A program made the position numbers and the translations under genes. Below are positions 15,509 through 56,016 of a stretch of 64,000 bases of DNA, piece after piece; position 1 is the first letter of the stretch; every line of letters starts with the position of its first letter. A model generated the notes under the pieces. The model saw only the letters and a list, made by a program, of their open reading frames with translations, had not been told where the DNA came from and made no database searches. The stretch covers positions 11,951,294-12,015,293 of the forward strand of contig OX457044.1 in the NCBI GenBank assembly GCA_949752735.1. The letters run 5' to 3'. This stretch comes from Lumbricus terrestris. Lineage: Eukaryota; Annelida; Clitellata; Crassiclitellata; Lumbricidae.

Positions 15509-15908
15509 GGTTTGGGTCCACTATTCCGAGGGTCCACTATTCCGAAGGTCCACTATTCCGAACCCTAACCCAAAACCTAACCCTAAACCTTATTATAACC
15601 CTAACCTAACTCACCCCAACCATAACCATAAGCCTAACCCTAACCCACTCCAAGCCTAACCATAACCCTAAACCTAACCCTAACTCACCCAACCATGACC
15701 ATAACCCGAACCCTAGCCATCCCCAGCCCTAACCTTAACCATAACCCTAAACTTAATCCTAACCTACCCAACCCTAACCCACCCTACCCCAACCATAACC
15801 CTAACCCACTGTAACCTTAACCACCAAGGATAACGAACACAGTATAGCGGATATTCGGAATAGTGGACCTTCGGAATAGTGGACCTTCAGAATAGCGGGC
15901 CGTTACCA
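15509..15908. mobile_element. Iterated-terminus inverted element A (telomere-like interior)
   Basis: Left end has three tandem 16-bp units GGTCCACTATTCCGAA (15515-15562); right end has three inverted units TTCGGAATAGTGGACC (15854-15901). Between lie about 290 bp of degenerate AACCCTAACC. A 9-bp direct repeat ATCCAGCGC flanks it (15500-15508, 15909-15917). The outermost bases are GGT on each strand. No coding capacity. Confidence 0.7.
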
Positions 15909-16519
15909 TCCAGCGCATGCTCTGTCCTTTGTGGTCCTCAATAGATCCGCTTGATTCCGATAGGCCGGTCCATGACATGATGTAATCGAGCCACCATGTT
16001 CTAGGATCTAGGACTAGGTCTAGCCTACAGGAGCTACGAACACTCTCCACCAGTCCCGTCATAACACTACTCTCGATACTATGCTGTTTTCGCATGATGT
16101 TTCCAAAGTATGGTGTAGGCCTAATTTTCGAGTTTTGACATGACCTAATAAATCACTTTTTGTCCCTGCTATAATTTGTAAACTCGTTCGTTAGTAAACA
16201 TTTCTGTCCATGTAATATGGAGTAGTTTCCTAATGCATTTGTTGTCAAAAGCCTGTATAAGTCTTTCTTCCTCCTTCTTTAAAATCCACGCGGACCATGC
16301 CTTACAACTATATATGCTGCCACTGGTCACACTAAGGCCCTCATCAATGTTATCTTTGTCTTGGAGCTGATTGCCTTATTGTTCTTCCATAGCTGTATCA
16401 ACTTAATCATGACTTTATCCATTACAGCATGGTTTTCAACCTGGCCATTCCACATCAATGTCCTTACTTGATATACAAGATAAAATCTCTAAAGCAATTG
16501 ATAATAATGAATTTTCTAT

Positions 16520-17014
16520 AGGTATATTCCTGGTCCTGGGCACGACGTTAAACTGCATCCATCCTCTGCCACAGGGAACCAGCAACTTCTCTGTGCCGGT
16601 CCTAAGCCCGGATAAAATGAGGAAGGTTTGCCAGATGGGTGGAGATACACTGGCAGTAAAAGACCAAGACCATAGAAATCCGCAAAAAACACGACACAAG
16701 TGACATAGCGACCCAGATGCTTCAAGGTGTCATGATGTGGAGCTGACATGCACAGGCCGGTCAGTACAGACCAGTGGAGAGAGTCGGGGGGGAGAGAGCT
16801 TTGGACACATACGGGCATTGACCCAGGTTGTCCTTCGTGCATCTCTCCCCATATTCTCTTCATCAGACAAGATGGTCTAGCTGGTTCAAGATGTTAATGG
16901 TAGGCCTATGGACCTGCAGACCGGACAGGTTGAAGATGGGCAGCGAGACAGACTCAAACAGAGAGTGGTGCCGGACACCTACGGGCGTTTAGCCCAAGGA
17001 TTTCGATGATGATG
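16520..17014 (+). repeat. Unclassified dispersed repeat, probably a LINE 3' end
   Basis: The sequence has a GC level unlike its surroundings, contains GTCCTGGGCACGACG and CCGGTCCTAAGCCCGG, and ends in GATGATGATG after CACCTACGGGCGTTTAGC. A short trinucleotide tail like this is typical of some LINE 3' ends. The reading frames are broken. Upstream (15918-16519) I see nothing assignable. Confidence 0.45.
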
Positions 17015-18478
17015 ATATTCCTGGACCTTGCCAAGGCATTTGATACGGTGAATCATAAAATAGGCCTACGTCTAGATAAATTACGGTATTAGAGGTGTTG
17101 CTCCCAAATGGTTTAAAAGTTATTTAGCTGACAGAACTCAACAGGTCCTATGTAATGGTTCATTGTCTACTCTCAAACTAATCTTATATGGGGCTCCACA
17201 GCGATCAATTCTCGGACCTCTTTTATTCTTAATTTATATAAATGACCTACCTAACTCGTCATCTTTACTACGATATATCATATATCCTATTTGCAGATGA
17301 CTCTAATGCATTCTTATCTAACTCTTCCTATGATCAACTAATTAACGTAGCTAAAAAGGAACTAGCTCTTGCTAGTGACTGGTTTGAAGCTACTGAACTT
17401 TCTCTTAACATTAGTAAAACTAACTATATTATCTTCAGGTCTCATAGAAAAACCATTCAAACTACTGTCAATGGATTATCAATTGATGGTGTTCCCATCC
17501 CTCAGGTGGAATCTTTAAGTTTCTTGGGGTCTTTGTTGACCAACACTTAAAATGGAATGTTCATACCTATGAAATATCAAAAAAATTATGAAGAATCTTG
17601 GAATATTAAGAAGAATCTCATACTTACTTCCTACCTTAATACTAAAAAACTTATATCATGCTGTATCAATGATGCTGTTCGGATGGCGATGGACCGGGTG
17701 GAGTGGAAAGGCTGCATTGCCCGATGTGCAGTTCTGCACGGGATGGACTAAGTACTAAGTACGCTCTAATTCAACCTTACCTATCCTATTGTAATTTCAT
17801 CTGGTCCTCAACTTACCCTACACACTATTTTACATTAAAATCTCTTTTTAAAAAGCCATCCGCATTATTACTAAGTCATCATATACCAAACCACTTTTTG
17901 ATGATCTAGGCCTAATTAAGATTTTTTAAATTGACCATATTAGATATATCCAAACATGTGAATTTATGTTTAAGTATGCTAATAACATGCTATCTACTGC
18001 CTTCTTGTCATTTTTTACCCCAGCATCATCAGCTATTGCTACTAGAAGTAACCGTATGTGTATTTTATGTGTCAATATGATATAGAACTAATTAAAACTC
18101 GTAAATTTTCTATACAGAACCAGGGACCACTAGCGTGGAACAATTTGACCAGTGACATACTAAAAACTCAGTTTACCACAATTCAAAGCACTTAGTCATA
18201 CCCATACATTAAACATAGAAAGGAAAACAAAAAATAATTGATACCTGGCTATATATATTACCTTCAGTCCATCTACCTACCTTTTCCTACTCAGCTACTT
18301 AATTACCTACCAGCGGGACCCGTCCCTTTAGGTGTGCCCTTTGTTCCCTATGCTTTCTTATAAATTTACTGTGTTATTTGTTCTGTTATTACAATTATCT
18401 ATTGATGTAGGCTACTGCATTAATTGAAATATGTTTCTTGGGTTCAATAAAATGAAATGAATGAATGAATGATGTAGG
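17015..18478 (+). pseudogene. LINE reverse-transcriptase fragment (jockey/CR1-like), degraded
   Basis: RT blocks can be read in order: FLDLAKAFDTVNH (catalytic block A), a GAPQ...LGPLLF block, the catalytic FADD in frame 17242-17550, then SLNISKTNYI and VESLSFLG. After about 17530 the frame breaks several times; YALIQPYLSYCNFIW and a final AWNNLTS-like block are still recognisable at 17760-18150. At about 17680-17755 a foreign segment interrupts the order. The 3' end is an (AATG)n tail at 18455-18478. Missing endonuclease and many stops mark it as dead. Confidence 0.8.
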
Positions 18479-18679
18479 CCTACCCACGGCTAACCTTGAC
18501 TTCACCTCTGCAGTACAGTCTGCACCTTCTACTTCCCAGATATATACCTACTCTAATCTACCATTGATCACTGCAATGCAATTCAATTCAATTTTCGTTT
18601 AATCAGCACTTCAGGCTGGCAGAACGCAGCATATTATGTTACTATGCATGTGCTAAACTATAATATCTTTGCTAAAAGC

Positions 18680-18893
18680 AGCAGCGGCGCCAGGATTTCA
18701 CTTTTGGGGGCTGAATGATCGCAGAGGAAATTTTTCCATTTTCATCCGCCAACATTTCTGACGACCTTTTTTTAGTCATCCGGTCGAAAATCGTGGAAAT
18801 ATTTCAGTTTTGCATGTAAAAAACCCCGGATGGCCTTTTTAGGAAGGGCTTATATTAGCTCCTCTAGCCTCTCCCCCCTAGAGCCGCCACTGG
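18680..18893. mobile_element. Degraded MITE-like repeat
   Basis: The start CAGCGGCGCCAGGA and the inverse of the end (CAGTGGCGGCTCTAG) look like hAT-type termini. The interior shares GACCTTTTTTTAGTCAT with the MITE at 10992. I do not see a convincing target duplication. Confidence 0.45.
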
Positions 18894-19149
18894 AATTTTT
18901 AAAAGGTTTTATGTATAAGTTCAGTTTAGGCTATATTATAAGCAACATAAATAAATATTGGGTTTGAATTAGGCTAATATTTATTGATCTGTGTTTGTTG
19001 TAAGAGCTTGCTAGGTTAAAAATGTTTTTGAGCAGTACGAGTAGGCCTACTCTAGAGATAAAGTTGCAGGCCTAATTATCTTTTTCCGGAAGAGAGAAGC
19101 CATGAGCTCGAGGACGGAGCTCATAACCACAGGAGAGGCGAGGCTGAGG

Positions 19150-19335
19150 GAATAATCGGTAGATTACAAGCAATTTATCTCCAACAGACCAATATGCCAA
19201 CTGAACAGGCAGCCTGCAATACATGGCGTTAATAAAAACCTACAAAGCACATATCCGCCCATTGAACGGGGGCTCGAACTCACTACCTCTCTCACTCTTG
19301 GCCAGCGTGTTATCCATTACGCTACAGGGCCCCCT
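19150..19335 (-). mobile_element. tRNA-derived SINE, family 2 (inverted copy)
   Basis: On the minus strand: GTAGCGTAATGGATAACACG (box A), GAGTTCGAGCCCC (box B), GGGCGGATATG, CATGTATTGCAGGCTG. Same order as the copy at 13.9 kb. Confidence 0.75.
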
Positions 19336-19591
19336 TTCTTCATGCTCAATGAACTGCCTTCTTGGTCTTCTGCTTATTATTCTTTTTTCGTTTAATTCTT
19401 TCGTGTAATTTTTGTGAAGTTTTTTTTACAGTTTCTCTGCTTCCATTGAGCGTTTCTTCTTTGCATAAAATTGCCTCTTCAAACTGTAGACTAAAAAACG
19501 TATCCTAGCATAGACTGGTTGTTGGCAAACCCACGTGACAAAAACATCATGCGCGCTCGGAGTTCTGGGAGGTTCTCATTGAAATGCATAA

Positions 19592-23900: not shown

Positions 23901-26900
23901 CTCTCGTAACTCTATGAATAACGGGCCGGAAAACCGGCCCGTCGGGTTCAAAGGGTTAAGGAGTTCACTTATTTGACCTCTACAGCTGATGTAAATTTAT
24001 TGAGAAACTATACCTGTTTAAGTTGTTTTGCAGACTTTAAATTTCGAAATAGAACAAATGAATCAATTGCTGCTACTGAACATTTAAATGCTCTCTGTTT
24101 GATATTTGTTCAGCCTGGAGAGATTGAAAACAAATTTGCTGGACTACTGGAGAAGAAGTGGACATCTGTGATAAGACTGCAGAAGAAGGTGACACATCAT
24201 TTCAACTGTGATATATTTATTTTATGCGTGTTTTAATTTGTTTTTTTGCAGATAAAATAGTTGTAGTAACGATCAGGGATTCCAGCAATACGTTCATCAC
24301 CGTGGCTCAATGGTGTAGCAGTGGTTCGGTGCCTTGGAGCAGGTTCAAATCCACCTCAAACCATCGCATTGGGACCTTGAGCAAGTTCTTCACTTGCAAT
24401 TGCTTGTGCACTTTGGCATGAAACTTCAATGCAGTGTCCGCGTTGTGGTTGGGGGCACCTCTGAGTGAGCTTGAAGGGGCACTATGGTAAATGCGAGAAA
24501 TAAATGCGAGATCAATAAAATGTTGATCAAAGGTACTGCTTTTGTTTTACTGATGGACCTAGTTGTATCCTAAATGTGCATGGCAACCTCATTCAACCAG
24601 CAAGAACTAGACATTTTATTCAGAGGGTTTCACGGTTACTTCATCATCCATCAAAGACATCTATCTATACAATCATCTGTCAATCGGTCATTTACATCTA
24701 TCCATACAATCATCTGTCAATCGATCATTTACATCTATCCATACAATCATCTGTCAATCGATCATTTACATCTATCCATACAATCATCTGTCAATCGATC
24801 ATTTACATCTATCCATACAATCATCTGTCAATCGATCATTTACATATATCCATACAATCATCTGTCAATCGATCATTTACATCCATACAATCATCTGTCA
24901 ATCGATCATTTACATCTATCCATACAATCATCTGTCAATCGATCATTTACATCTATCCAATCATCTGTCAATCGATCATTTACATCTATCTATACAATCA
25001 TCTGTCAATCGATCATTTACATCTATCCATTCAATCATCTGTCAATCGGTCATTTACATCTATCCATACAATCATCTGTCAATCGATCATTTACATCTAT
25101 CCAATCATCTGTCAATCGATCATTTACATCTATCCATACAATCATCTGTCAATCGATCATTTACATCTATCCATTCAATCATCTGTCAATCGATCATTTA
25201 CATCCATACAATCATCTGTCAATCGATCATTTACATCTATCCATACAATCATCTGTCAATCGATCATTTACATCTATCCATACAATCATCTGTCAATCGA
25301 TCATTTACATCTATCCATACAATCATCTGTCAATCGATCATTTACATCCATACAATCATCTGTCAATCGATCATTTACATCTATCTATACAATCATCTGT
25401 CAATCGATTATTTACATCTATCCATACAATCATCTGTCAATCGATCATTTACATCTATCCATACAATCATCTGTCAATCGATCATTTACATCTATCCATA
25501 CAATCATCTGTCAATCGATCATTTACATCTATCCATACAATCATCTGTCAATCGATCATTTACATCTATCCATACAATCATCTGTCAATCGATCATTTAC
25601 ATCTATCCATACAATCATCTGTCAATCGATCATTTACATATATCCATACAATCATCTGTCAATCGATCATTTACATCCATACAATCATCTGTCAATCGAT
25701 CATTTACATCTATCCATACAATCATCTGTCAATCGATCATTTACATCTATCCAATCATCTGTCAATCGATCATTTACATCTATCTATACAATCATCTGTC
25801 AATCGATCATTTACATCTATCCATTCAATCATCTGTCAATCGGTCATTTACATCTATCCATACAATCATCTGTCAATCGATCATTTACATCTATCCAATC
25901 ATCTGTCAATCGATCATTTACATCTATCCATACAATCATCTGTCAATCGATCATTTACATCTATCCATTCAATCATCTGTCAATCGATCATTTACATCCA
26001 TACAATCATCTGTCAATCGATCATTTACATCTATCCATACAATCATCTGTCAATCGATCATTTACATCTATCCAATCATCTGTCAATCGATCATTTACAT
26101 CTATCCATACAATCATCTGTCAATCGATCATTTACATCTATCCATTCAATCATCTGTCAATCGATCATTTACATCCATACAATCATCTGTCAATCGATCA
26201 TTTACATCTATCCATACAATCATCTGTCAATCGATCATTTACATCTATCCATACAATCATCTGTCAATCGATCATTTACATCTATCCATACAATCATCTG
26301 TCAATCGATCATTTACATCCATACAATCATCTGTCAATCGATCATTTACATCTATCTATACAATCATCTGTCAATCGATTATTTACATCTATCCATACAA
26401 TCATCTGTCAATCGATCATTTACATCTATCCATACAATCATCTGTCAATCGATCATTTACATCTATCCATACAATCATCTGTCAATCGATCATTTACATC
26501 TATCCATACAATCATCTGTCAATCGATCATTTACATCTATCCAATCATCTGTCAATCGATCATTTACATCTATCCATACAATCATCTGTCAATCGATCAT
26601 TTACATCTATCTATACAATCATCTGTCAATCGATCATTTACATCTATCCATACAATCATCTGTCAATCGATCATTTACATCTATCCATACAATCATCTGT
26701 CAATCGATCATTTACATCTATCCATACAATCATCTGTCAATCGATCATTTACATCTATCTATACAATCATCTGTCAATCGATCATTTACATCTATCCATA
26801 CAATCATCTGTCAATCGATCATTTACATCTATCCATACAATCATCTGTCAATCGATCATTTACATCTATCCATACAATCATCTGTCAATCGATCATTTAC

Positions 26901-29900
26901 ATCTATCCATACAATCATCTGTCAATCGATCATTTACATCTATCCATACAATCATCTGTCAATCGATCATTTACATCTATCCATACAATCATCTGTCAAT
27001 CGATCATTTACATATATCCATACAATCATCTGTCAATCGATCATTTACATCTATCCATACAATCATCTGTCAATCGATCATTTACATCTATCTATACAAT
27101 CATCTGTCAATCGATCATTTACATCTATCTATACAATCATCTGTCAATCGATCATTTACATCTATCCATACAATCATCTGTCAATCGATCATTTACATCC
27201 ATACAATCATCTGTCAATCGATCATTTACATCTATCCATACAATCATCTGTCAATCGATCATTTACATCTATCCAATCATCTGTCAATCGATCATTTACA
27301 TCTATCTATACAATCATCTGTCAATCGATCATTTACATCTATCCATTCAATCATCTGTCAATCGGTCATTTACATCTATCCATACAATCATCTGTCAATC
27401 GATCATTTACATCTATCCAATCATCTGTCAATCGATCATTTACATCTATCCATACAATCATCTGTCAATCGATCATTTACATCTATCCATTCAATCATCT
27501 GTCAATCGATCATTTACATCCATACAATCATCTGTCAATCGATCATTTACATCTATCCATACAATCATCTGTCAATCGATCATTTACATCTATCCATACA
27601 ATCATCTGTCAATCGATCATTTACATCTATCCATACAATCATCTGTCAATCGATCATTTACATCCATACAATCATCTGTCAATCGATCATTTACATCTAT
27701 CTATACAATCATCTGTCAATCGATTATTTACATCTATCCATACAATCATCTGTCAATCGATCATTTACATCTATCCATACAATCATCTGTCAATCGATCA
27801 TTTACATCTATCCATACAATCATCTGTCAATCGATCATTTACATCTATCCATACAATCATCTGTCAATCGATCATTTACATCTATCCAATCATCTGTCAA
27901 TCGATCATTTACATCTATCCATACAATCATCTGTCAATCGATCATTTACATCTATCTATACAATCATCTGTCAATCGATCATTTACATCTATCCATACAA
28001 TCATCTGTCAATCGATCATTTACATCTATCCATACAATCATCTGTCAATCGATCATTTACATCTATCCATACAATCATCTGTCAATCGATCATTTACATC
28101 TATCTATACAATCATCTGTCAATCGATCATTTACATCTATCCATACAATCATCTGTCAATCGATCATTTACATCTATCCATACAATCATCTGTCAATCGA
28201 TCATTTACATCTATCCATACAATCATCTGTCAATCGATCATTTACATCTATCCATACAATCATCTGTCAATCGATCATTTACATCTATCCATACAATCAT
28301 CTGTCAATCGATCATTTACATCTATCCATACAATCATCTGTCAATCGATCATTTACATATATCCATACAATCATCTGTCAATCGATCATTTACATCTATC
28401 CATACAATCATCTGTCAATCGATCATTTACATCTATCTATACAATCATCTGTCAATCGATCATTTACATCTATCTATACAATCATCTGTCAATCGATCAT
28501 TTACATCTATCCATACAATCATCTGTCAATCGATCATTTACATCCATACAATCATCTGTCAATCGATCATTTACATCTATCTATACAATCATCTGTCAAT
28601 CGATCATTTACATCTATCCATTCAATCATCTGTCAATCGATCATTTACATCTATCCATACAATCATCTGTCAATCGATCATTTACATATATCCATTCAAT
28701 CATCTGTCAATCGATCATTTACATCTATCCATACAATCATCTGTCAATCGATCATTTTCAATCAATGTTTCTATTGGTCCACACTGAAAAGCTATAATAA
28801 GCTAGCTCTGTGTTGACAAGTAGAAATCGATATATGAAAATAAAACGAGAGAATAAAAGGAATTATTCAGCGGTTGGATAAACTTTCAGTGGATAATTAT
28901 CTATGGGATATGTCTGTATATGTCCTTGGCAGACTGATGAATTGCGACCCTCAGGGCTTCAGGAACTCTGCCCAGATCAACTAATTCAACAGTGTAGGAG
29001 GATTATAAAATGTGGGACGCGGTGGTGTAGTGGGTATGTTCGCCGCCTTGCAGCTGAAGAGTTGCAGGTTCGAATCCAACTCAAGTCGCTGCGTAGGGAA
29101 CCTTAGGCAAATCCTTCACTTGTAATTGCTTGGCGCTTCGGCATGAAACTCTGATGCAGTGCCCGCTCTGTAGTCGGGAGCGCCTCTGAGTAGCGAGCTT
29201 GAAGGGGCGCTATAACATTAGCCCACGTTAGCTACATCGGTAAGAGAGCTGGCGTCTGTGGAAGAGAGCGTGCGGGCCGTGGTTCGATTCCTGAAGGTGG
29301 CTATTTCAGATATTCAAAATCTCGGGCTAGCACGGTCCATCCACGGGGACCTAAATGGCGTGGCGTCCATTCAAACGGGCGAGCGGTGGCAAAGGATCTC
29401 ACCTTCAGGGTCGAGGCCTTAAGACAGCCGCTATATAAAAATTCGATTACATTTACATTTTAACAAGTGCGGATTCAACCAATAAAATAGGTTGGGGATC
29501 TTTTTTACAGCAGAGGCAGTTATCCAACTTTCAAGCCTTCTGTCACAAACTATGGTTAGAAGGATGAACATTGAACTTTAATGAGGTTGAAGTAAAATAA
29601 TTTCTTGAGAAATTCTGTTTATTCTGTTCAAGCTTCAGACATTTATTTTAAGTAGCGACATCTCCAAAGCTAGCAATTCAGATCAAATCTAAAGAATACA
29701 ATGCATTGTAAACTGTGTGTATTCAATATTTTTCATAAGATAAATTTGTTTGCAATGTCCGCTGAACTGTGACTGGAATGTGTGATGACAGGTGATGGAT
29801 CTGGAATCGCGTCTGGTGGAGACGGAGAAGGAAATTCATTCCGGTGGTCCAACAAAGGAGAAGAGAAATCCGGCCGAGTGGATCCCGCGACCTCCAGAGA

Positions 29901-32900
29901 AGTTCTGCTTGACTGGACATCGAAGTACGGTCACGCGAGTCGTTTTTCATCCGGTTTTCAGCGTACTTGCGTCAGCAAGTGAAGATGCAACTATTAAAGT
30001 AAATGGTATTCTGTTTAATATTAGACAAGTAACAGAGCTCGTCTTTCTATGTATTTTGTTCAAATGTACGTATAGAATGTAGCATGTTTTTGAAGACTAA
30101 GGATTATGGTTATTAAGCAATTATCGGAAATCCAATTATTGGTTTTGAAAACGATAATCAGTTTCACTATTTATAAACCGATAATCAAATTCATTTTAAA
30201 AATAATTTATGATTCATGCTTTTGATTCATGCTATAATATAGTTGGAACAAATGCATGAATCATGAATTATTTTTTAAAATATATACACTTAAAGGTTGC
30301 CGAGAGAACAAACTAGCCTAATTGCCACAAATAAGCGGTAGGTGCGATGCTGCATTGCCCACGACCCATTATGTGTAAGAGGCTGTTGACCAACGGTATG
30401 GTGGATGTATGGCATGCGGCAATTTGAGTTGAATATTGTCATGCATTTAGTCAAATTTCAACTCTTTGTGATGGCGAAAATGAAAACCATTGTATGATTC
30501 GTTGTCAGCGAACAAGATGAGTTAATTACAGAACGTCAAATGCAATGAATCCCGCGATCTTTGTTTACACCAATGAATGCTTATAATTATATAGTTTACA
30601 CTGTCAGCTACACTAGTTTACCAGCTGGATAATCGGATTTTCTATAAGGCCAATTAATTGGACAAAAGTTTAAAAATCGGACTTCTAAAATCGATAAGTG
30701 GTTTGTAAAAAAAACCGATATAATTGACAACCCTATTAAGGATGTAATTCTTTTGAGAATTTATTATTATATTATTATTATGTAAAGACCGTGTGTTTAT
30801 GAGAATTCATGTTGTGATGAAGATCAGAGCGAGGAGGAGGAGGAGGCTCTGGCCGATGTGTTTGGTTGATGCTGCAGCACTTGATGTTGCTGGCTAAAAT
30901 TAAATGAAACGGATTTGAGATTTTCATTAATGATCTCTCTCACACTTTAGATTTGGGATTATGAGACCGGTGACTACGAAAGAACTTTGAAGGGCCACAC
31001 GGATTCTGTTCAGGATCTGGCTTTTGATCACACTGGAAAGTGGCTTGGTAGGACATTTCATTTGTATGTATCTTCTGTACTGCTACATATGTATCTGTTA
31101 GCATCATGAAGTATTTCAGATCAATATTTAAAGAATGGCCGGTTAGATGTGAATGAAGTAGTGTAGTAAAAGTTTTGTGTGTTCCTCATTTCATCTCATC
31201 AGCTTCTTTGACATGATGAGTGTCAATTATAGATGGAACGTTTGGTCAGACTTTGATCTTTTTCTGCTCATCATCATGAATATTGATCAGTCGTTTGTCG
31301 CAGTTGAGTTTATAATTTATGCAACTTTCACTGATCACTGGAATGAGATTAAGGTACTAAGGACTGGAATTTTATTTTATGGATTCATGTTGGCCATCAA
31401 TTTTTGCAGATCTGTGACTCTAATCATCTGCTATGATGCAGTATTAAATAAATGAGGCATAAGAACCATCATCAGCAGCCGGTCAATTGGTCAGCTCTGC
31501 AAAGATTCCTGTCTTCATCCAACAGAGATCTCGGCTGAATGGCGTCTACACACAGAATGTCAGCTTCATCTTCTTCCACCTTCTGCAAGGGACTGCTGCC
31601 TGCTGGTGGTTGAGTGTGTGCATGTGTGCATTTGTGTGTGTGTATGTCTGATGCCCGTCATTGCTCATTTTCTCAATGCTACGCTATTCAGGAAGCGTGA
31701 GCATGAGGTCAACTGTTGATGGATGGAATCCACTGGTTGGACTCTGCCCATTTGTCTATGGAAGGCTGCTCTAGAACAATGGTTCTCAAACTTCTGCAGG
31801 CCGCGGACCAGCAATAATTTTTTTGGAAGCTCGCGGACCGCCAACTCAAATGGCAAGCCTAAACAAAAGCGAACTATATTATTTAAAAAATAATCATAGG
31901 GCTATTTATAATTAAGGATTGGTTTAATCAATTAAAGCATATTCCTAATATCATTTAATTTATTTATCCATTAAGTTGTCATTTAATTACATTTTTAAAA
32001 GTTAAACTCAAAGTTTCAGAACAAAATTAGAAGTTTGTTAATGTAGGCCTATATATAAGAGGATCTGCAAAAATATAGATAAAGACAATATAACTAAGAT
32101 TGTGCGCTAATGATGGAAGCAGCACGCCGACAAAAGCGCGCAGACAAATGCGCGCAGACATATGCGCGCAACAGGAGACCTCCCAAAACACCCCCGGCAA
32201 AAGCGCGCAACTAATGTTTTTATGAAGGTATATATGTATGTGCATATGCATGCATGTATGTATATGTATGCATATGTATGCATAATTATGTATATATGCA
32301 TGCATATGTATGTATGTATGCATAATTGCATATGTTTGCATATATGCATATGCATGTATGCATATGTATGTATGCATATTATGTATATATATATATGCAT
32401 ATGTATGTATGCATGCATGCATGTATGTATGCGCATGTATGTATATATGTATGTATGTATGTACATACATCTACATACATACATACATAATACATACATA
32501 CATACACATACATATGAATACATGCATACATACATACATACATACACACATACATACATACTTACATATACCTAAGATTTTTCCTGTTGCGCGCATTTGT
32601 CTGCGCGCTTTTGTTACTGCGCGCATTTGTCTGCGCGCTTTTGTCCTGCGCGCTTTTGACGTGCACCGATGGAAGCACCTGCTTGAAATAAAAAACCGAA
32701 ATCAGAATATCACCAGATTTTAACTATTGTGAATCATATTTTCGTGTGAACGGTCGATTATTTTTTTGGCTTTGATCGAATATGAGACCAGTTCAGAACT
32801 GTCAGTTTCTTCACCCAGAGAGTCTCAGCATTCGCGCTCTATCACTGTTCTTTCATTTCAAAACAATGTCCTAAGAGACTTGTTTACGTTTTGTTAATTT

Positions 32901-35900
32901 TTAAATGCTTCAAATACATTTGTTTATATTTAAAATTCTATGTTATGTTAGAAAATTAAAAGATCTACATCTAGTAATGCTTGATCAGCGTTTACTTGAC
33001 TATATATAGCTCACCATAGATCAACAGAAATAAGCAGACTGCAGTCATAGGCGTAGAAAATTCTGAATAAATAAAATTGTTTGAATAGCCATTGGGCAAG
33101 TTAAAAATGGTGCTGGTAATGTATTTTTTAAGTTTGAGACAGAATTTTGAATAAATTTTGAACAACAATTCAAATAATTTCACAATTTTAAATATATAAA
33201 CCAATAATTATAATTTATTTTTCGCTCTCAGACTTCTTCACGGACCGGTGATCAGGACTTCGCAGACCGGCACCGGTCCGCAGACCACCACTTTGAGAAC
33301 CACTGCTCTAGAATGCTCGTTTTGCTGACAAGCTGTTTATTCTGATTGACTTTCCTATAATTTAGACTGGCATAGGTAGTGCTTTGGTGAATTTGTTGCA
33401 TCATATATATACATATCAAATGTTTAGATATATTTCTGTATTCCAGTTATCATAATTGTGCTTTCTTTTCGTTTAGTGTCTTGTTCAGCAGACATGATGG
33501 TCAAATTATGGGACTTCCAGACATACGAGTGTGTTAGAACGATGCATGGTAAACTTCTCATTTTATCTATCATATAGGGGATTGTGGGGCACGATCATCG
33601 ATTGCCTCTACGTGGCTCTGGTGAAGCGTGTGCTCCACATTTGAACAAACATATGAGTCATGATTTACATTTAAAGCTTCTGTCAATGGCTGACCAGTGC
33701 TTCAAAGTGAGATTACAATCGACTGTTGTTGTCATTTGTGCAGAGTAGAAGGCAGGCGCTGTTATGGCTTCAGCTGTTTGACACTTGTGTACGTCATTTT
33801 AGCTTAGATCTGATTGACTTTAAAAAGTGAAAGACAAAACTGGCTGTGTAACAGTTTTAACAGCTTCAGAGAAAATGAATGAAGTGGACGAACTGTTTCA
33901 GTTGTGAGGAGCTAACAAACTCTGAGGAGAGATGCTTTTGGTCTCTGCGTCAGTCCAGTGGTTTGCGATGGTTTAGAAGGGAAGTAAAACTGAATATCAT
34001 CCGATTGCAGTGATGAATGAGGCCATGTACTTCTAGCTCTGCAAGATTTGCGCAGATGCTCAACAGCAGCAGGGAGGAAGGGCCAGGAATTTCGATGATG
34101 TTTCAATTGACAGTTTGGATTCTGCAAGAAACTCCGTCTCAGCAGAGGATGTTCAAATTGATAGCTGGATATTCAAAACTATGTTCTCACTATGGCTAGG
34201 AAAATTGTTTTGTTTAGGTGGATGCGTTGTGCATTAGGCATGAGTCAGTGGCGTAGCAAGGTTTTTGGGGGCCCTTGTGCAGGGCTTTCGTGGTGGGCCC
34301 CTTCAATGCTTGAACCCCAAGATTTCAAACAATAAAGTTGTGCAAAAGCACCTGACTTTTGCGATATACAATTTGCATAGGCTCACATTCGAAATTAAAT
34401 TTTAAAATTAACTTATTTCAATTTTTCTTATTTTCTCCAGTTTGGCTCCATAAAACATTTTCTATTTCTTCAGGCTGCCAGAGTATACTGAACAAAATGT
34501 ATCAGTAAACATTGTTCCTCTCTTGTAGTATGAATTATAACCATCCACACTTAAATTCTATCAAACAGCTGGGTTATTTGACTAAAAAAGAAACCATTTA
34601 ATAAATTGGTATAATGTGAAGCGACTCAAGTTTGGGTTACTAAGATAAGTCTAAAAGAAGAATAACAAAATTCGGAAATGCTGAAATGTTCGCTTGGGTG
34701 AATACCTTTGGGCGAATTCCCTTGCGCAGAAATAATTGAGATGCATTCGTTCCAGAATCATTTTGTAAAGTCACTGGCATATTATAGGCCTACCACCATA
34801 GTTTCCAAAATGCCTCTCTGCTCGGTGTCGATATTCGAAGCCACCACCACCTCAGCATTGATCAAACTGAACTCAATTCTGTCACCAGGCTTGATGAAGT
34901 CATCGGGGTCTTGTACAGTATCTGCACAATCCACCGTTGTATATGCGGATTTGATCATTTGAAAGCATTCTAAATATTCTTAAAGTAAAAATTGACTGTG
35001 ACTGTGGGGCCCCTATACAGCTGGGGGCCCCTGTGCAGTGCCCCTTGTCTGATGTAGTCATCTGTGCAAGCTCGCTCTCCGCAAGTATCATAAACGCGGA
35101 AATTTGTTGCATTTTGGCGGTGTCCGGACAATTCGTCCCCGGACAATTCGTCCCGGACAATTCGTCCCGGACAATTCGTCCCCGGACAATTCGGACCCGG
35201 ACAATTCGGACCGGACAATTCGTCCCCGGACAATTCGGACCGGCTATAGCCTACTTTAGCCTCAGTCTATGCGTGACTTGTCCATTCTGGACTAGGCCAA
35301 CCTATTGCTTTCCAAATATACCTTTAATGTCATAGCCAAGTGAGGTAACGTGTTATATTATGTTTAGGCCTACATTTGCTTTGAGAACAATGAAATAATT
35401 TTCAATTTCGAATTGAATTTTAATGCGCAGCAGTATCTCCGGTCGACATCTGTATACGGTAATGGTGTCCGGGACTAATTGTCCGGGGACGAATTGTCCG
35501 GGACGAATTGTCCGGGGACGAATTGTCCGGGACGAATTGTCCGGGACGAATTGTCCGGGACGAATTGTCCGGGGACGAATTGTCCGGGACGAATTGTCCG
35601 GGACGAATTGTCCGGGGACGAATTGTCCGGGAACCATTTTGGCGGTCTTCTTTACACGTTCTTCTCGTGCTTGACGCTTAGCAGCGCCACTTAAATAAGA
35701 CTTAGGCATTACTTGGGGGACAGAAAGAGAGTGCCGTACGAGAATTAAAAAATATACAATTTGCATGTAAATAGGCTATGTAGTTATCTATTATAAATTT
35801 CACATTTTACTACAAAGATAATAAATTTTAAACACGCCTGCATAGACACAACTATGTTTATACGTCAGCATAGCTACTTCCAGCCAAAGACTGCAAAGGG

Positions 35901-38900
35901 TAAAAATATTTGTAATAGGTTAATCATAGCACATCGCAAACCGGTTGTTTGGACATTCCGGCTCAAACCCAAAAAATTATTGAGTGTGTGTGCACTGTAC
36001 ATATAGGTTTGAATGCATTCTGAATATCCTTAAAGTAAAAATTTGACTCTGACCCCGGGGGGCCCTTGACAGCCGGGGGCCCTTGTGCACTGCACAAGCT
36101 GCACAACCTATTGCTACGCCACTGGCATGAGTATTGAGTACCATAGATAATAGATACTTAAGTTATTATTAATAATTACTACAGGAAGAAGGGTAGAATG
36201 GAAAAACTGGTGCAACTACTATGAGCTCATTCGCAATAGTAAGGAATTACAACATTGTGTGACAAATGCAAATCAGTTGTAAACACAGAAATTAATTTGA
36301 TGTTGCTTCAAATCGCATTCAAAGGGAAAAGAGTGATTTTACCTGAATGAACATCTTCGACAGTTTCTCATTTATAAGGATTAATTTTAACATTTAAATT
36401 TACAGCATAACTTACAGTAATAATGGTGAGTCCATGTATGACTAAGAATAGCAGTGGCCATGCAATATGGACTGACTGGCTTCCAGTCCATCCAGATTTT
36501 GTCACGTGTTGTGTGAATTGCAGGTCATGACCACAACGTGTCGAGTGTCATGTTTCTTCCAAATGGGGATTTCATTATCTCAGCTTCTCGAGACAAAACA
36601 ATCAAGATGTGGGCAGTGGCCACTGGGTGAGAAAACCTTTTACTTAAATAATCTTCATTTTTATGCAATTCTCAGATTTCTTGCTGTGGGTGAGCTAAGT
36701 GGGAAGGATATCATTTTCCATGCTTCCCTGAATGCTTGCGCAGAGGCGTACAAGCAATCAGAGAAGGTCACAGTGCCTTCTTCTAACTTTTTGTTAGTTT
36801 AAAAAACACTTACTGTTGAAGAGAAATGTCTTTTAGCTTGAAATTATAATTGTGAATTTGTGTAGATTCATGTTAAGGGAAACGAGATGCAAGTGTCAAT
36901 TTTTTAAATGATGCGCATATGATTGGATGATTAGAAGTTTTGAACATTTAAAATTTAAGCCAAATCTGTTTCTAATCAAACTTATCTAACGCCACATGAC
37001 TTTGTGTCATCAGTGTCCAAATGTTACAATGTAATTTTCTTGCACTTTTATTGCTAAAAAGTTGACAGCTATGTCATCAAAGTCATTTGTTTCAACAGTT
37101 ATGTCATCAAAGTCATTTGTTTCAACAGTTATTTCATCAAAGTCATTTGTTTCAACAGTTATGTCATCAGAGTCATTTGTTTCAACAGTTATGTCATCAA
37201 AGTCATTTGTTTCAACAGTTATGTCATCAAAGTCATTTGTTTCAACAGTTATTTCATCAAAGTCATTTGTTTCAACAGTTATGTCATCGGAGTCATTTGT
37301 TTCAACAGTTATGTCATCAAAGTCATTTGTTTCAACAGTTATGTCGTCAAAGTCATTTGTTTCAACAGTTATGTCATCAAAGTCATTTGTTTCAACAGTT
37401 ATGTCATCAGAGTCATTTGTTTCAACAGTTATTTCATCAGAGTCATTCGTTTCAACAGTTATGTCATCAGAGTCATTTATTTCAACAGTTATGTCATCAG
37501 TCATTTGTTTCAGCAGTTATGTCATCAGTCATTTGCTTCAACAGTTATGTCATCAGAGTCATTTATTTCAACAGTTATGTCATCAGTCATTTGCTTCAAC
37601 AGTTATGTCATTAGAGTCATTTGTTTCAGCAGTCCCCTGCTTTGCAATGAACAGGAGTGTCAGTCATCCCTTGCACTAATTAGGATCATGGGTGCCTGCA
37701 ATTCGTAATCATCATTACATTGTTTGGTCGTCAAAATGCAGATGGACTTAATTGTTGTTCTGGTTGTTGTTGTGTTAGTTATTGTGTGAAGACATTTACT
37801 GGTCATCGTGAGTGGGTGAGGATGGTGAAGGTGATCGGCGATGGGTCGTTGCTCGCGAGTTGTTCCAACGATCAGACGGTTCGTGTGTGGGTCGTCGCGA
37901 ACGGTGAATGTAAGGTGGAGTTACGTGAGCACGAACATGTCGTCGAGTGCATCGCTTGGGCATCGGAATCCGCACACACGTACGTCAACGAGGCTCTCGG
38001 CAACGATGTGAGTCTCACGCATCTCACTCTTAACAGTTCTTCGAGTCTTCTTCTTCCATTTCACATGATATTCAGATTAAACGGAAAGACATTGAAGTGC
38101 AACTTTGAGCAAACAGTTTGCTCATAGATTTTGTTAGCGCTCCATCCCTGGAATGGCAAAGACGCATGATTCATGCGACATTTGTAGCAATTCCTATAGG
38201 GTCTCCTGATGCTGGTGTGGGTTTGCATAAGACATATACCACTGTTAGTAGGGGAACCGTATCCTTGCCATTTCCATTATTTCTGTATAAATGAGCGCTA
38301 CTGTAAATATTCAACACTTCTTCTACTTGTTGTGTGTGAGTTTGTGTTAAACGAGGGTGGTTTTTTGTTGTTTTTGCAAAGATCTGCATTTATGTCAGCC
38401 ATCGCAAATCAGGAATTTGTCAATTTTATTTGGATTCAAAGTGAATAAAGAATCATCTGTGATTGATAATAGCACACTGAGTATCTATAATTAGTGACTT
38501 GACAGATATTTCAAGGAATTGCGACGACAATGAAATTTAGTTAAGTTCATCTGGCGTCTGTATAACCAATGATAAATATTTGGGAGAAAGGTTCGAGATA
38601 TTTTGCCTCAAGATGGTAACTGATTTGTCTGAGTCTAAGTCATGCACAGCTGCTGATGTCAGTGCTAGTTAACCTGCTGCTTCTCATCTCTGGTCTACAA
38701 TTGTTTGCACTATGATGGACTAGAGTTGCTGGACTGCAGGGACTAATACCTGAAACGTAATGTAATGTAACATTTCTATTGTATTGTATCTATAGATTTA
38801 TATGGCATCTCTCACAGTGCACACCAATCAGAGTTGCTCCCAGTGCATTAAACCAAGAGAGGAAAAAGTGGTATTGAGACAACGAAAGAGGCATTTGGCC

Positions 38901-46839: not shown

Positions 46840-46959
46840 GGGCATTTATGCTACGTGTCATCCGATGATTAGGAGAAAAGGTCATTTATGCTACGTGTCA
46901 TCCGATGATTAGGAGAAAAGGTCATTTATGCTACGTGTCATCCGATGATTAGGAGAAAA
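46840..46959. repeat. 40-bp tandem repeat, 3 copies
   Basis: Three near-perfect copies of a 40-bp unit beginning ggtcatttatgctacgtgtc. Downstream of LIS1; no coding role seen. Confidence 0.93.
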
Positions 46960-47395: not shown

Positions 47396-47422
47396 AATGT
47401 GTGTGTGTGTGTGTGTGTGTGT
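47396..47422. repeat. (GT)n microsatellite
   Basis: Pure GT dinucleotides of about 26 bp in unassigned DNA between the LIS1 3' region and the next LINE end. Confidence 0.9.
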
Positions 47423-47861
47423 TGTGGTTTAAGGAGGAGGAAGGAGTTCACTTGTATGAATCTCGTTGGATATTCAGTAACAACAAATGCTTTTTAGAGG
47501 TACTGCAAACGTAGAGTCATGTAAAGTGTCTTAAGACACGCTTACATGCTGAGAAGCAAATTTACTTTTTTGACTGAAAAGCTGCTAGCATTACAGTCTT
47601 ATTTGTGACTCTTTTTTGTCACAAAAAAGCAATGATTGCATAGGCCTACTGTAAGGGTGTGTGTTTGATGTGACACTTTTCCCAGATGTTTCCGTTTCAT
47701 TGCATGTTGTGCTGCTGCAAATTCTGCATTCAAAGATTTCTGTCTGTTTAAGCGTTATGTTAACAGCGTTATCTTGAATCAGCGCTGCAGATTCAAGCAG
47801 ACGGAATAAGGAATCTGCATAAAGATGCATAACAGTAGCAAGACAACAAATCTATCCATCT

Positions 47862-48215
47862 ATCTGTGCAGTTTATATAGCGCCACTTAAAGATAACTAT
47901 TCAGAGATGCTCACGACCCAGGCACAGCCAAAGAGGAAAGTCTTGAATGGTTTATAGGAAAAGTTAGACAAGTCCCATCAAAGAGAACGCAGGCCAATGG
48001 GAGGCTATTCCAAACAGAGATGCCCACAATCGAAAATGGCTCTGCGTGTATGTGGAACCACACAGTTGCTCCTAGATGTAGAGCACAGCGACCAGAGCAA
48101 GTTGAAGTTAAGGTAAAGAGCGCCCGAAGATAGACAAGAGCACAGCTCAGGGCCAGGCGATGGAAGAAACCCTGTAATGGATGTGCTGCTTGACATAGAT
48201 CTAAACAACAAGAAA
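47862..48215 (-). pseudogene. LINE 3'-end fragment, minus strand
   Basis: On the minus strand a frame reads IVGISVWNSLPLACVLFDGT and later SLAVPGS then stop, the usual end of jockey/CR1-type LINE pol (SWNSLP motif). After the stop comes GAGCATCTCTGAATAG and GTGGCGCTATATAAACT, the same tail as SINE family 1. Confidence 0.7.
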
Positions 48216-48764
48216 GTCCCCCCAAATATGTGTTTAATTCACTATTAACCAAATTTTCTTACATGGTAAAGCTTATGCATCTTATGTTTAAATGCGCAAT
48301 TTAGTTTTTAGTTGTCGTTTTATGAATACTCGAAATTATTTTGATCAAATTCCAAGTGTAGAGGTCTACAAAATGACACAGTTTGGCCATAATTCCTCTA
48401 ACAATTCTGGCATTGCCAAATAGACACAATAATACATATAGTAATATTATTAAATATATTATTTTATTAATAATTATTATTATTATTAAAAAACTTGTTT
48501 TGGCATGCCTAAACAAAATAAGGAATTCTGTACAAAGATCATAACAGAAAATTGATCGTAGTAAATGTTAAACAAATGCCTAATTGAACATTCGCTCTAT
48601 TCATTTTTGCGCTTTTCATTGCGCCATTTGGATGGATGGATCCAGAGTTTATGACAACAGCTTAATTTTGACGACGAAGTCTGTTGATGTCGACAGAAAT
48701 TGTTTAACTATAGTATCAGGGAGTGACGTGTCGGTTAGGATCAGGTTAGGCGTCGTGAGTTCAG

Positions 48765-48950
48765 TTAAGGCTGAGGTTAGGCATGGTGAGGGTCAGTTAA
48801 GGCTCAGGTTAGGCATGGTGAGGGTCAGTTAAGGCATGGTGAGGGTCAGTTAAGGCTCAGGTTAGGCATGGTGAGGGTCAGTTAAGGCTCAGGTTAGGCA
48901 TGGTGAGGGTCAGTTAAGGCTCAGGTTAGGCATGGTGAGGGTTGGTTAGG
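48765..48950. repeat. 32-bp minisatellite, GTTAGG-rich
   Basis: About five units of gttaggcatggtgagggtca + gttaaggctcag. It resembles degenerate telomere repeat and adjoins an iterated-terminus element. Confidence 0.88.
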
Positions 48951-49061
48951 TCGATTGCGGTGCACTATTCCGAGGGTCCACTGTTCCGAGGATCCACTAT
49001 TCCAGGGTCCGCTATTCTGGGGGTTGTACTGTTATATGCCTATTATGATAAATTCATTCTT

Positions 49062-49240
49062 TCATTCGAGTAGGCCTATTTATATAGCACCTCCTGGAGA
49101 AAAACTACTCAGAGGTGCTCCTGACTCCAGCACGGCCAAAAAGAACAGTTTTCAAGTGTTCCTTGATCACTGTCCTTCAGCGAACGGAAGTGAGGCAGAC
49201 AAGCTGTGTATTAAGCTATTTTCTGATTTTAAATTGTAAT
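49062..49240 (-). pseudogene. LINE 3'-end fragment, minus strand
   Basis: Minus strand ends with GGAGCACCTCTGAGTAG and GAGGTGCTATATAAATAGG, the shared LINE/SINE tail, preceded by a short broken pol frame (about 170 bp). Confidence 0.65.
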
Positions 49241-49317
49241 CTCCAAACTCCTGAAGCTTGGGGATTGTTAGTCAATGGATTGATTTGAGGATGGGAGTGA
49301 TGTGAATGCAGTTTAGC

Positions 49318-49453
49318 CAGGACTGAAAGTGATTTGAAAAAATTGCCGGGTCTCTTTCGCCCAGAGGGTGCTAGGTATATGTGTTTATTCAAGTGCCAAA
49401 AAAATTGATGCCGGGTCTGAGACCCGGACAGACCCGGCTCACTTTCAGCCCTG
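49318..49453. mobile_element. hAT-type MITE (136 bp)
   Basis: CAGGACTGAAAGTG and CACTTTCAGCCCTG ends; perfect 8-bp duplication AGTTTAGC on both sides (49310-49317, 49454-49461). Same family as 39006-39290 but half as long. From 49462 to 50190 there is a degenerate repeat of TTCAAGTATAAATCTTCAAC-like phrases and no gene. Confidence 0.9.
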
Positions 49454-50194
49454 AGTTTAGCTATAGGCTATTGGGACTATTTGCAATATTTACTAAGCTA
49501 TTTGTTTCGTTTAAAGTGAGAAAGTATTAATTTGATGATCGTTTGGACTACAGTACTACACCTATCTGCAAATATCATGGAAATGCACCACGAAACAGCA
49601 GAAATTATTAAAAGACTTCAAATACAGCTCCTCAAATACAATACTTGGATTCGATTCAAGCCTTTCATTAAGAACTATCAATAATTTACCGAAATTCTTC
49701 TACAGACAATTTCCACAGACAATTTCTTCAATGAACCATTTTCTTTAAATTCAATTCTTCACTTCAAGCACCTCATCCAGAACAGCCAAGAAACTGCATG
49801 AGCTCTTCAAATAGATTCTTTCCACAGTAGCCAAAAAATGTGAATTCTTCAAGTAATTCTTCATTTCCAGAACACTGGACATCAATTCGTCAACAAGAAA
49901 TTCTGTAATTAGGCCTACAGCCAAAATTCAAGTATAAATCTTCAACAACCAGGAAATTCTTTGAATTCAAGTATAAAACCTCAACACCAGAAAAATCTTC
50001 AAATTCAAGTATAATTCTTCATCCAGAACAACCAAGAAAGTACAACTCTTCAACTACAAAGCCTTCCAAAATTCAAGCATAGGCCTACTTCTATGTGTCA
50101 AAGGTTAACCATAGCCCTAACACAACACTAACCCTAACCTTAAACTATATGCTAACTAGGGGGTAATATAATCAAAGACCATAGAGTAACTTAA

Positions 50195-51341
50195 CACATT
50201 GGCCGCCAAGGACGAGTTAACTCGTCCTTCAAAAGATTACGCACACGCCAGGGACGAGTTAACTCGTCCTTCAGGGAACTGTTGTTATTTAATCATAACG
50301 CGTTTCAATAAGACATCAAAAATGGGGGAAAATAAATTTCAGCCCTTTTCCCAGATGGGTTGGGTCATGTGGGGTATGGTGCGGCGGAGTTGGGGTATGG
50401 ATCGGTGATTTGGGGCCGGGTTGGGGGCAGGCGGTCTGAGTGAAAACAAAGTGAAACATTATTTTCCATGGTTTTCATAAGTTGAGCACTTTGCGAGGTG
50501 AGGTGGGGTGGGGGTGGAGGATAGAATGCGGCGGGTTCGATTTTGGGTGGACTCGGAAATTTGGGGGGGGGATTTTTTGGAAAATTTTTGGGGGGGAATT
50601 TTTTCCCGAAAACCAAAATTTCACGGGTGGCGTACCGGCAGAGGTCCGATTTTGGGTGAACTCGGGGAAATTTTGGGGGGAACTTTTTGGGAAAATTTGG
50701 GGGGGGAATTTTTTGGGAAATTTTGGGGGGAATTTTTTCCCCGAAAACCAAAATTTCACAGGTGGCGTACCGGTAGAGTTCCGATTTTGGGTGGACTAGA
50801 AAAATTTTGGGGGAGAATTTTTCGGGAAATTTTGGGGGCAATTTTTTTCCGAAAAACACAATTTTACGGGTGGCGCCCCGGTGGAGGTTCGATTTTGGGT
50901 GGACTCGGAATATTTGAGGGGGGGGAATTTTGTCTCGGAAAATAAAAATTTCACGTGTGGCGTACCGGTGGGGTCGGAGTTAGTGGGGGCGTGGTGTGGA
51001 GTGGGGTGTGAGGGGAAATTTGGGGAGGAATTTTTTTCCCGAAAACCACATGCAATTTCCTCGAGTGGCGTACTGATGGAGGTCGGAGTTAGTGGTGGCG
51101 TGTTGTGGGGGAGGTGGAGAAGGGGTGGGGGAAATTTTGGGGGATTTTCCCCCGAAAACTCATATTTCTCGGATGGCCTACCGTTGGATGTCGGAGTGTG
51201 GTGGTGGGTGTGGTGGGGTTGTGGCCGGAACGGGTCGAATCCTAAATTTCTCGGGCAACGCCGGGTACTCCAGCTAGTATGTTGATAATTTTGTGACTTT
51301 GGCTTGGCGTAGCGGTAATAATAGTCGTGGCGGTCAATGTG
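50195..51341. mobile_element. piggyBac-like (TTAA-target) non-autonomous element
   Basis: TTAA at 50191-50194 and 51342-51345. Ends CACATTGGCCGCCA and TGGCGGTCAATGTG are inverse with one mismatch. Two perfect 18-bp palindromes GGACGAGTTAACTCGTCC lie at 50210-50227 and 50252-50269. The body is a G-rich tandem repeat. Confidence 0.78.
50500..51275. repeat. G-rich tandem repeat, about 120-bp units, ending in a Helitron-like motif
   Basis: At least six diverged units, each with CGAAAACCAAAATTTCAC, GGTGGCGTACCGG and TTTTGGGTGGACTCGG-type phrases and long G runs. It ends in CGGGCAACGCCGGGTACTCC and AGCTAGT, a GC hairpin followed by CTAG, which resembles a Helitron 3' end. The overlapping frames are artefacts. 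Confidence 0.7.
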
Positions 51342-51422
51342 TTAAAGGTCTTTGATATAATTATCTCAACTCTAACCCCCGGAATAGCGGACCCTCGGAA
51401 TAGTGGGCGGGTACCGTTAGGT

Positions 51423-56013: not shown

Positions 56014-56016
56014 TGC

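What the first reader, a model, noticed from the sequence alone, without database searches (positions are those of the whole stretch)
15509..51414. Elements with iterated inverted ends, GGT termini and 8-11 bp target duplications
Four elements share an architecture I cannot name. A (15509-15908), A' (48953-51414), B (32122-32667) and C (35121-35635) each begin and end with inverted tandem arrays of a short motif (16 bp ATTCCGA type, ~28 bp GCGCGC type, 14-15 bp GGACAATTCGTCCC type). The interior is low-complexity or telomere-like. Read inward from the right, the ends are GGTAACGGCC, GGTACCCGCC, GGTGCACGTC and GGTTCCCGGA. Flanking direct repeats are ATCCAGCGC (9), GTTAGGTC (8-9), GATGGAAGCA (10) and ATTTTGGCGGT (9-11). 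That TSD size is known for Mutator-like elements; a Mutator link is inference. Motif sequences differ completely between families while the layout holds, so arrays may be transposase-binding sites that expand by slippage.
Basis: partly seen in the sequence, partly recalled or inferred. Interest (0 to 1): 0.78.

Follow-up and report, generated by a model that had tools for sequence, protein, structure and literature searches.

The report
Jumping genes with repeat-array ends
The four odd elements are real, short, gene-less jumping genes whose ends are built from stacked copies of a short motif; two of the three families are tied by sequence to gene-bearing Mutator-type (Phantom-like) transposons elsewhere in the same animal genome, so they are striking but of an already described kind.

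Summary
All four window elements have facing end arrays and exact target duplications (TSDs), but of 8 or 9 bp, not 10-11. GGT (GGC at one B end) starts both ends, not only the right. The array patterns hit 2,284 (C), 3,067 (A) and 2,372 (B) places in the 1.06 Gb genome (controls 0). Among the first 100 listed hits per family, neighbours face each other: 14/14, 21/22, 28/28. Copies examined repeat the 8/9-bp TSD: C 15/18, A 17/20, B 11/11; mismatched controls 0/306, 0/380, 0/110. Unfilled sites exist for A and C.

The layout has a name: composite-TIR ("type 2 Foldback") Mutator-like elements, as in Muta1 and Tm1. The Mutator link is shown for two families. B arrays flank MULE genes (four loci; two FLYWCH+MULE with 9-bp TSDs). 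The C interior is 98.5% identical over 202 bp to the 3' part of an element with a 456-aa FLYWCH+MULE frame; that region follows a MULE domain at 17 of 22 places. A's transposase was not found.

In passing: six MULE families show GGT ends but different 12-16-bp units. New members of a known kind.

The parts
15500..15508 (.). A: left target duplication ATCCAGCGC (9 bp)
15509..15907 (+). A: non-autonomous element, 399 bp, ends GGTTTGGGTC ... GGCCGTTACC
15515..15562 (+). A: left array, 3 units of 16 bp GGTCCACTATTCCGAA
15854..15901 (-). A: right array, inverted 16-bp units (about 3)
15908..15916 (.). A: right target duplication
32112..32120 (.). B: left target duplication GATGGAAGC (9 bp)
32121..32667 (+). 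B: non-autonomous element, 547 bp; left end AGCACGCC (GGCACGCC in other copies), right end GTGCACC; TATG-rich interior
32121..32170 (+). B: left array, 14-bp GCGCGC units
32588..32658 (-). B: right array, inverted 14-15-bp units
32668..32676 (.). B: right target duplication
35111..35118 (.). C: left target duplication ATTTTGGC (8 bp)
35119..35635 (+). C: non-autonomous element, 517 bp, ends GGTGTCC ... GGGAACC
35124..35237 (+). C: left array, 8 units of 14-15 bp
35264..35465 (+). C: interior stretch 98.5% identical to the 3' region of the MULE-encoding element L111
   Evidence: Cint 28-229
35466..35632 (-). C: right array, 11 inverted units
35636..35643 (.). C: right target duplication
48945..48952 (.). 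A': left target duplication GTTAGGTC (8 bp)
48953..51415 (+). A': long A-type element, 2463 bp, ends GATTGCGG (GGT mutated) ... GGGTACC; interior unlike A, partly made of repeats found elsewhere
48959..49017 (+). A': left array, 4 units
51375..51406 (-). A': right array, 2 units
51416..51423 (.). A': right target duplication

Best explanation
They are non-autonomous Mutator-like DNA transposons of the Phantom/Muta kind with Foldback-type composite ends. Each end is a short terminal motif starting GGT (or GGC) followed by a family-specific array of 14-16 bp units. Longer relatives elsewhere in the genome encode a FLYWCH zinc finger plus MULE (DDE) transposase. SHOWN: insertion makes an 8- or 9-bp target duplication; unfilled sites exist (A, C); B-type and C-type arrays belong to elements with MULE genes; the C MITE shares interior and one end type with such an element; array length changes faster than interior sequence. 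INFERRED: the transposase, acting in trans, binds the iterated units, pairs the two ends, cuts at the GGT terminus and joins to a cut staggered by 8-9 bp; C arose by internal deletion; arrays grow and shrink by replication slippage or unequal exchange; family A uses a similar transposase not yet found.
For: Copy number and facing pairs. TSDs against mismatched controls: C 15 of 18 vs 0 of 306; A 17 of 20 vs 0 of 380; B 11 of 11 vs 0 of 110. Unfilled paralogous sites for A copies and for one C copy, the latter's relative inside the window. B arrays on both sides of MULE frames in L071, L081, L083, L084; 9-bp TSDs at L071 and L081, read by eye; FLYWCH and MULE above Pfam's cut-off in L071 and L081, MULE alone in the shorter frame of L083. 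C: L111 frame with FLYWCH 2.9e-11 and MULE 5.6e-11, C-type array of 8 units and GGTGTCC end, 98.5% identity over 202 bp with the window C interior; 17 of 22 long matches of its 3' region lie 1.4-2.7 kb downstream of a MULE domain on the same strand, about 0.0002 expected per place. Two aspartates invariant and a glutamate nearly invariant in 10 aligned proteins. Interiors 99.0% identical on average among 12 C copies while their arrays range from 2 to 16 units.
Against: No transposase tied to A or A'; the one MULE found beside A arrays is a nested element with its own TIR. The left end and TSD of an autonomous C copy were not reached. In L111 the end next to the shared interior carries GGTGTCC, while in the MITEs it carries GGTTCCC, an unexplained swap. 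3 of 18 C copies and 3 of 20 A copies lack the duplication; L083 and L084 show none. L085 falls inside the B transposase clade but shows no B array within its 3.3-kb locus. L063/L079 carry arrays without a visible GGT end. No binding or cutting was tested. No significant match to a solved structure (best E 0.18).
Confidence: 0.92

Rival explanations
1. The arrays are minisatellites that arose or inserted independently, and the facing pairs and flanking repeats are coincidental.
For: The window is rich in tandem repeats; some arrays are much expanded (29 units in L060); many listed arrays have no listed partner (A 43 of 85, B 42 of 98, C 5 of 33).
Against: Listed arrays closer than 6 kb face each other, bar one same-strand case in A; 8/9-bp TSDs against zero in controls; unfilled sites; arrays at the ends of transposase-coding elements.
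Confidence: 0.02
2. The elements are mobilised by another superfamily that makes 8-9-bp duplications (Merlin, hAT, P/Galileo; TSD sizes recalled); the layout only resembles MULEs.
For: TSD size overlaps; Galileo shows that Foldback layout can occur with a P transposase (PMC3169594, section 11). For A and A' nothing excludes it directly, and I searched for no other transposase.
Against: B and C are tied to MULE genes by sequence. A shares the asymmetric GGT termini and the 8/9 mix.
Confidence: 0.05
3. The arrays are not recognition sites but by-products of TIR expansion, tolerated because only the outer 10-30 bp matter; the link between motif and transposase clade is inheritance alone.
For: C copies with very few units at one end exist (2 in L034, 1 in L039), and A copies usually carry about three. 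Array motif and transposase are physically linked, so shared descent alone would give the clade pattern.
Against: Arrays are kept at both ends in three high-copy families; array-bearing ends were seen in seven MULE groups here, and in 10 of 12 long-TIR MULE families of Aedes aegypti (PMC5225508).
Confidence: 0.3

Closest known systems
Muta1 and the Muta families of Aedes aegypti (PMC5225508; passages read)
   Same: 8 or 9 bp TSDs; TIR = 8-10-bp terminal motif plus nine copies of a 12-15-bp subterminal tandem repeat (Muta1, Muta5); MULE transposase of about 500 aa; hundreds of derivatives with variable repeat numbers; Muta1 called type 2 Foldback; Muta elements group with Phantom (PMC6446971, passages).
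   Different: Different host and sequences. The Muta1 terminal motif is described as an imperfect palindrome; no GGT end is named in the passages read. About 20% of Muta1 derivatives align with host genes; I did not test this here.
Tm1 of root-knot nematodes (PMC3169594; abstract and sections 3, 5, 9, part 1 of 11 read)
   Same: Composite TIR of 1-9 units of about 14 bp, unequal between ends; asymmetric 7-bp terminal motifs outside the array; 9-bp TSDs; MITE-like members and one encoding a FLYWCH-like + MULE (Phantom) protein; empty sites shown.
   Different: Low copy and described as senescent there; here thousands of array hits and C interiors about 99% identical. Terminal motifs differ (CGGTTAA / CCTACCC there).
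Sea urchin TU elements and Drosophila FB/Tetris (PMC4079207 passages; TU details recalled, no paper seen)
   Same: Foldback layout with tandem repeats in the inverted ends; 8-10-bp TSDs for Tetris; TU recalled as having about 15-bp repeats and 8-bp TSDs.
   Different: Tetris units are about 220 bp and its authors found no autonomous copy; the TU transposase is unknown to me; Galileo, a Foldback relative, uses a P transposase.

Membership tests
Phantom (Mutator-like elements) | Transposase with N-terminal FLYWCH zinc finger and MULE domain | tested here: met
   Met for the B relatives L071, L081 and the C relative L111. For A and A' no transposase was found, so not met there.
Phantom (Mutator-like elements) | TSD of 8-10 bp (PMC6446971, Table 1 passage) | tested here: met
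   8 or 9 bp in C 15 of 18, A 17 of 20, B 11 of 11; none at 10-12 bp where tested
Phantom (Mutator-like elements) | Conserved DDE residues in the transposase | tested here: met
   D172 and D234 invariant, E364 nearly invariant in 10 sequences; reading these as the catalytic triad is recalled knowledge
Phantom (Mutator-like elements) | Placement with canonical Phantom sequences in a transposase tree | not tested
   No reference Phantom set was at hand; named homologues in aphids, beetles, rotifers and molluscs
Foldback-type (type 2) composite TIR | Terminal inverted repeats made of a variable number of short tandem units | tested here: met
Non-autonomous derivative of the autonomous element | Shared ends and interior with the gene-bearing copy | tested here: inconclusive
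   C: 202 bp of interior and one end read, other end not reached. B: both ends alike, interior not compared. A: no gene-bearing copy.
Mutator-like elements | Transposition catalysed by the MULE transposase | not testable with these tools
   Needs an excision/reinsertion assay
P superfamily / Galileo | THAP + P transposase between the ends | not tested
   No search for P transposase was made; B and C have MULE genes instead

The most novel reading that the evidence does not exclude
Within one genome at least six MULE lineages (B, C, D, D2, and the CCCGTCAAAATAG and GGGCGC types; FLYWCH+MULE shown in five of them) keep a common GGT cleavage end, in several cases with two different terminal motifs on the two ends, while each carries its own iterated 12-16-bp unit that has changed together with its transposase. 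The ends would be modular: a fixed cutting signal plus a fast-evolving, copy-number-tunable recognition array, a natural series of matched transposase/array pairs in which private codes isolate each family from cross-mobilisation.
Probability: 0.45. Interest if true: 0.62.

Novelty: new member of a known kind. Interest (0 to 1): 0.42.

Why it matters
The B and C systems, with open FLYWCH+MULE frames and (for C) MITEs about 99% alike, look recently active and offer matched transposase/array pairs to test why Foldback arrays exist and how family-specific recognition evolves.

Tried and rejected
Rejected: independent minisatellites (controls and empty sites). Rejected: the MULE at C1:29371867 as A's transposase. 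It looked promising because A-type arrays lie on both sides, but its homologue L090 has a perfect 73-bp TIR whose relatives (82-89%) flank the C1 copy too, inside the A arrays, so it is a nested MULE with a ZSWIM-type RNaseH match; no TSD joins the outer A arrays. A' interior as a lead to an autonomous A: 41 matches, none beside a MULE place when compared by eye (40 of 4,261 candidates scored). A pattern search for another A terminus did not complete. A search for FLYWCH did not complete. A pattern for L111's end type gave 19 hits, of which only L111's own lies beside a 456-aa-type MULE place (compared by eye), so other gene-bearing C copies must have other end arrays. A solved-structure search found nothing significant.

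First tries that failed through my own rules: let the right end of C match inside the array and gave almost no TSDs; anchors the terminus. One search matched only 14 of 22 A entries; one search uses a looser rule with the same freedom given to its controls. One search demanded ACC at the right end and gave 4 of 11 for B; one search allows the GGC-type end at either side and gives 11 of 11. Rows dropped before counts: L021 and L037 (C, both ends not found), L050 (duplicate of L049), A' (outside the rule; its TSD is exact). The copies fetched come from the head of each listing (contigs C1 and C2), not a random sample. One search looked for A, B and C units in 30 MULE loci, for self-inverted repeats in the same 30; the array scan covered 17 of them. 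One search entered 23 of the 143 MULE places; the five 3'-region places without a partner were compared by eye with the whole list.
Full report
What is there. The window is G000:C10:11951294-12015293 of a 1.056 Gb genome in 331 contigs; I take it for an animal genome but did not establish the species. Four elements stand at A 15509-15907, B 32121-32667, C 35119-35635 and A' 48953-51415, each between exact direct repeats of 9, 9, 8 and 8 bp. Tandem Repeats Finder, inverted-repeat search and a separate scan see the facing arrays.

Genome-wide test. A 27-31-base pattern of each array, up to 2 mismatches, gives 1186+1098 (C), 1493+1574 (A) and 1181+1191 (B) forward+reverse hits, against 0 for the reversed patterns. 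These are hits, not elements. Among the first 100 listed (exact) hits of each family, merged into arrays, neighbours closer than 6 kb face each other in 14 of 14 (C), 21 of 22 (A) and 28 of 28 (B) cases. Arrays without a listed partner are common (A 43 of 85, B 42 of 98, C 5 of 33), at least partly because only exact hits are listed (L034 and L039, singletons in the list, have partners with fewer or altered units), so the pairing fraction is not measured.

Target duplications. C: of 20 loci (19 fetched, 1 window) both ends were found in 18; 15 of 18 have a repeat of 8 (10 copies) or 9 bp (5 copies) with at most one mismatch; 0 of 306 mismatched flank pairs do. A: 17 of 20 (window A included), 16 exact, control 0 of 380. 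B: 11 of 11 (window B included), 10 exact, control 0 of 110. Lengths of 10-12 bp did not appear where tested. The 8/9 mixture is that reported for Muta1 (PMC5225508, passages).

Empty sites. Joining the flanks of 32 copies that have a TSD and comparing them with the DNA already fetched gave paralogous unfilled sites, with no gap within 15 bp of the junction, for A copies L042, L049 and L058 (the last at only 68% identity), and for C copy L023, whose unfilled relative (76%) lies in the window at 34591-34864. L052 has a 2-bp gap in the duplication; L045 and L031 align badly at the junction. For B only microsatellite matches came up, which I do not count.

Ends. The termini are asymmetric and start with GGT: C GGTGTCC / GGTTCCC, A GGTTTGGGTC / GGTAACGGCC or GGTGTCGGCC, B GGCACGCC or GGCGCCG / GGTGCAC.

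Array dynamics. In C the 237-bp interior is on average 99.0% identical among 12 copies (66 pairs, 95.4-100%), while the unit numbers of these 12 range from 2 to 16, and of all 18 from 1 to 16. A usually has about 3 units per end but L060 has 29 and L061 has 9 at one end. Array length therefore changes faster than sequence. Three C copies (L031, L032, L036) have a different interior with the same ends.

The transposase. The genome gives 143 MULE-domain matches (150 of 211 candidates scored). In L071, L081, L083 and L084 the MULE reading frame lies between inverted B-type arrays; in L083 and L084 the frame is shorter and runs out of the left array, and I saw no TSD. L071 has CTAGAAAAA and L081 CCAGGAAAC at both sides (by eye). 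The L071 and L081 proteins carry FLYWCH and MULE domains above Pfam's cut-offs; L083 only MULE. L111 holds a 456-aa FLYWCH+MULE frame, a C-type array of 8 units ending in GGTGTCC and a 202-bp stretch 98.5% identical to the window's C interior. An 801-bp query from its 3' region has 22 long matches, 17 of them 1.4-2.7 kb downstream of a MULE domain on the same strand, while its last 111 bp alone hit C MITEs, ten of them copies fetched. So C MITEs share sequence with a Phantom-like transposon present with a MULE domain at 17 or more places; internal deletion is the simplest account. 209 homologous proteins were found (120 listed); the named ones include mollusc, aphid, beetle and rotifer entries, and many carry both domains. 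The left end of L111 was not reached.

Other families. D (L086-L088, L112; unit ATTTCGTCG) has GGTTCCC at one end and GGTGGCC or GGTAACC at the other, with 8-bp TSDs read by eye at L086, L087 and L112 but none seen at L088; L112 is FLYWCH+MULE, the 345-aa frame of L087 MULE only. D2 (L064, L078) shows GGTATCC at one end and FLYWCH+MULE (L064). L070/L072/L076 show GGTGGCCCGTCAAAATAG at one end; their relative L073 is FLYWCH+MULE. L080 shows GGTGACCCGTCAAAAGGGCGC at one end, MULE only in a 321-aa frame. L063/L079 have arrays without a clear GGT. L069 (FLYWCH+MULE) is flanked by about 1.5 kb or more of longer-unit arrays. L090/L093 are MULEs with a ZSWIM-type RNaseH match; L090 has a simple 73-bp TIR. 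In a tree of 20 transposases, rows with the same unit fall together in five array groups. Against this, L085 falls inside the B clade without a B array in its locus; some branches are long, one group (CCCGTC) is not fully supported and the order of clades is open. Since motif and gene are physically linked, this does not prove co-evolution.

Family A and A'. No gene-bearing copy was identified. The MULE between A arrays on C1 is nested. A' has A-type arrays around a different interior, the first half of which was searched. Their assignment to MULEs is by layout, termini and TSD only.

Comparison. The layout is described: Muta1 has 8/9-bp TSDs, a terminal motif plus nine 12-bp repeats and variable-repeat derivatives, and 10 of 12 long-TIR Aedes MULE families have subterminal tandem repeats (PMC5225508, passages). 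Tm1 has asymmetric 7-bp termini, about 14-bp units and a Phantom-type gene (PMC3169594: abstract, sections 3, 5, 9 and part 1 of 11). Nothing in the listings or passages I saw names a shared GGT end; that says nothing about papers not held or not opened. PMC13359780 was seen in passages only and is not used. The Phantom paper of 2010 is not held and is known to me only through citations; the sea urchin TU papers are recalled, apart from their mention in PMC4079207.

Verdict. Real, well observed, correctly suspected; new families of a known kind. The most interesting remainder is the shared cutting end with private arrays across lineages in one genome.

Noticed in passing
window 55316-60831: A different DNA transposon: 263-bp perfect terminal inverted repeats, TTAA at both ends, a 606-aa ORF at 58120-59940(-) without a significant Pfam match.
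   Followed up: partly
window 52439-52892 and 61877-62329: Two alike repeat blocks 9.4 kb apart (first 60 bases identical) that look like LTRs around a gag/protease ORF 53318-55366, split by the TTAA element above.
   Followed up: no
window 24657-28757: 37-bp satellite, 113 copies, open for about 1,400 codons in two frames.
   Followed up: no
window 37720-38127 and about 33475-33550: WD40 exon and a second stretch resembling LIS1/PAFAH1B1 (recalled), so the C element lies within or beside a gene.
   Followed up: no
L060 401-859: A-type element with 29 units at one end and 2 at the other.
   Followed up: partly
L049 and L050 (C1:60.42 and 60.55 Mb): The same A insertion with the same flanks in inverted orientation 127 kb apart: it looks like an inverted segmental duplication after insertion.
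   Followed up: no
L068 2445-3010: Small element with 15-bp units CGACAACTCGTCTAC, ends GATTCCAC / GGTGTCAC and 9-bp TSD AATTTTAGG, read by eye: looks like a sister family of C.
   Followed up: partly
L111 4647-4763: The end beside the shared interior carries GGTGTCC in this gene-bearing C copy but GGTTCCC in the MITEs: termini swapped, unexplained.
   Followed up: no
L069 with L097, L098: MULE ORF of 510 aa flanked on both sides by about 1.5 kb or more of inverted longer-unit arrays.
   Followed up: no
L091, L092: Identical-scoring 474-aa MULE ORFs at ten listed places; the one tested, L092, has a C-terminal RING finger.
   Followed up: no
L085: Transposase inside the B clade but no B-type array within its 3.3-kb locus: truncated copy or changed ends, not resolved.
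   Followed up: no
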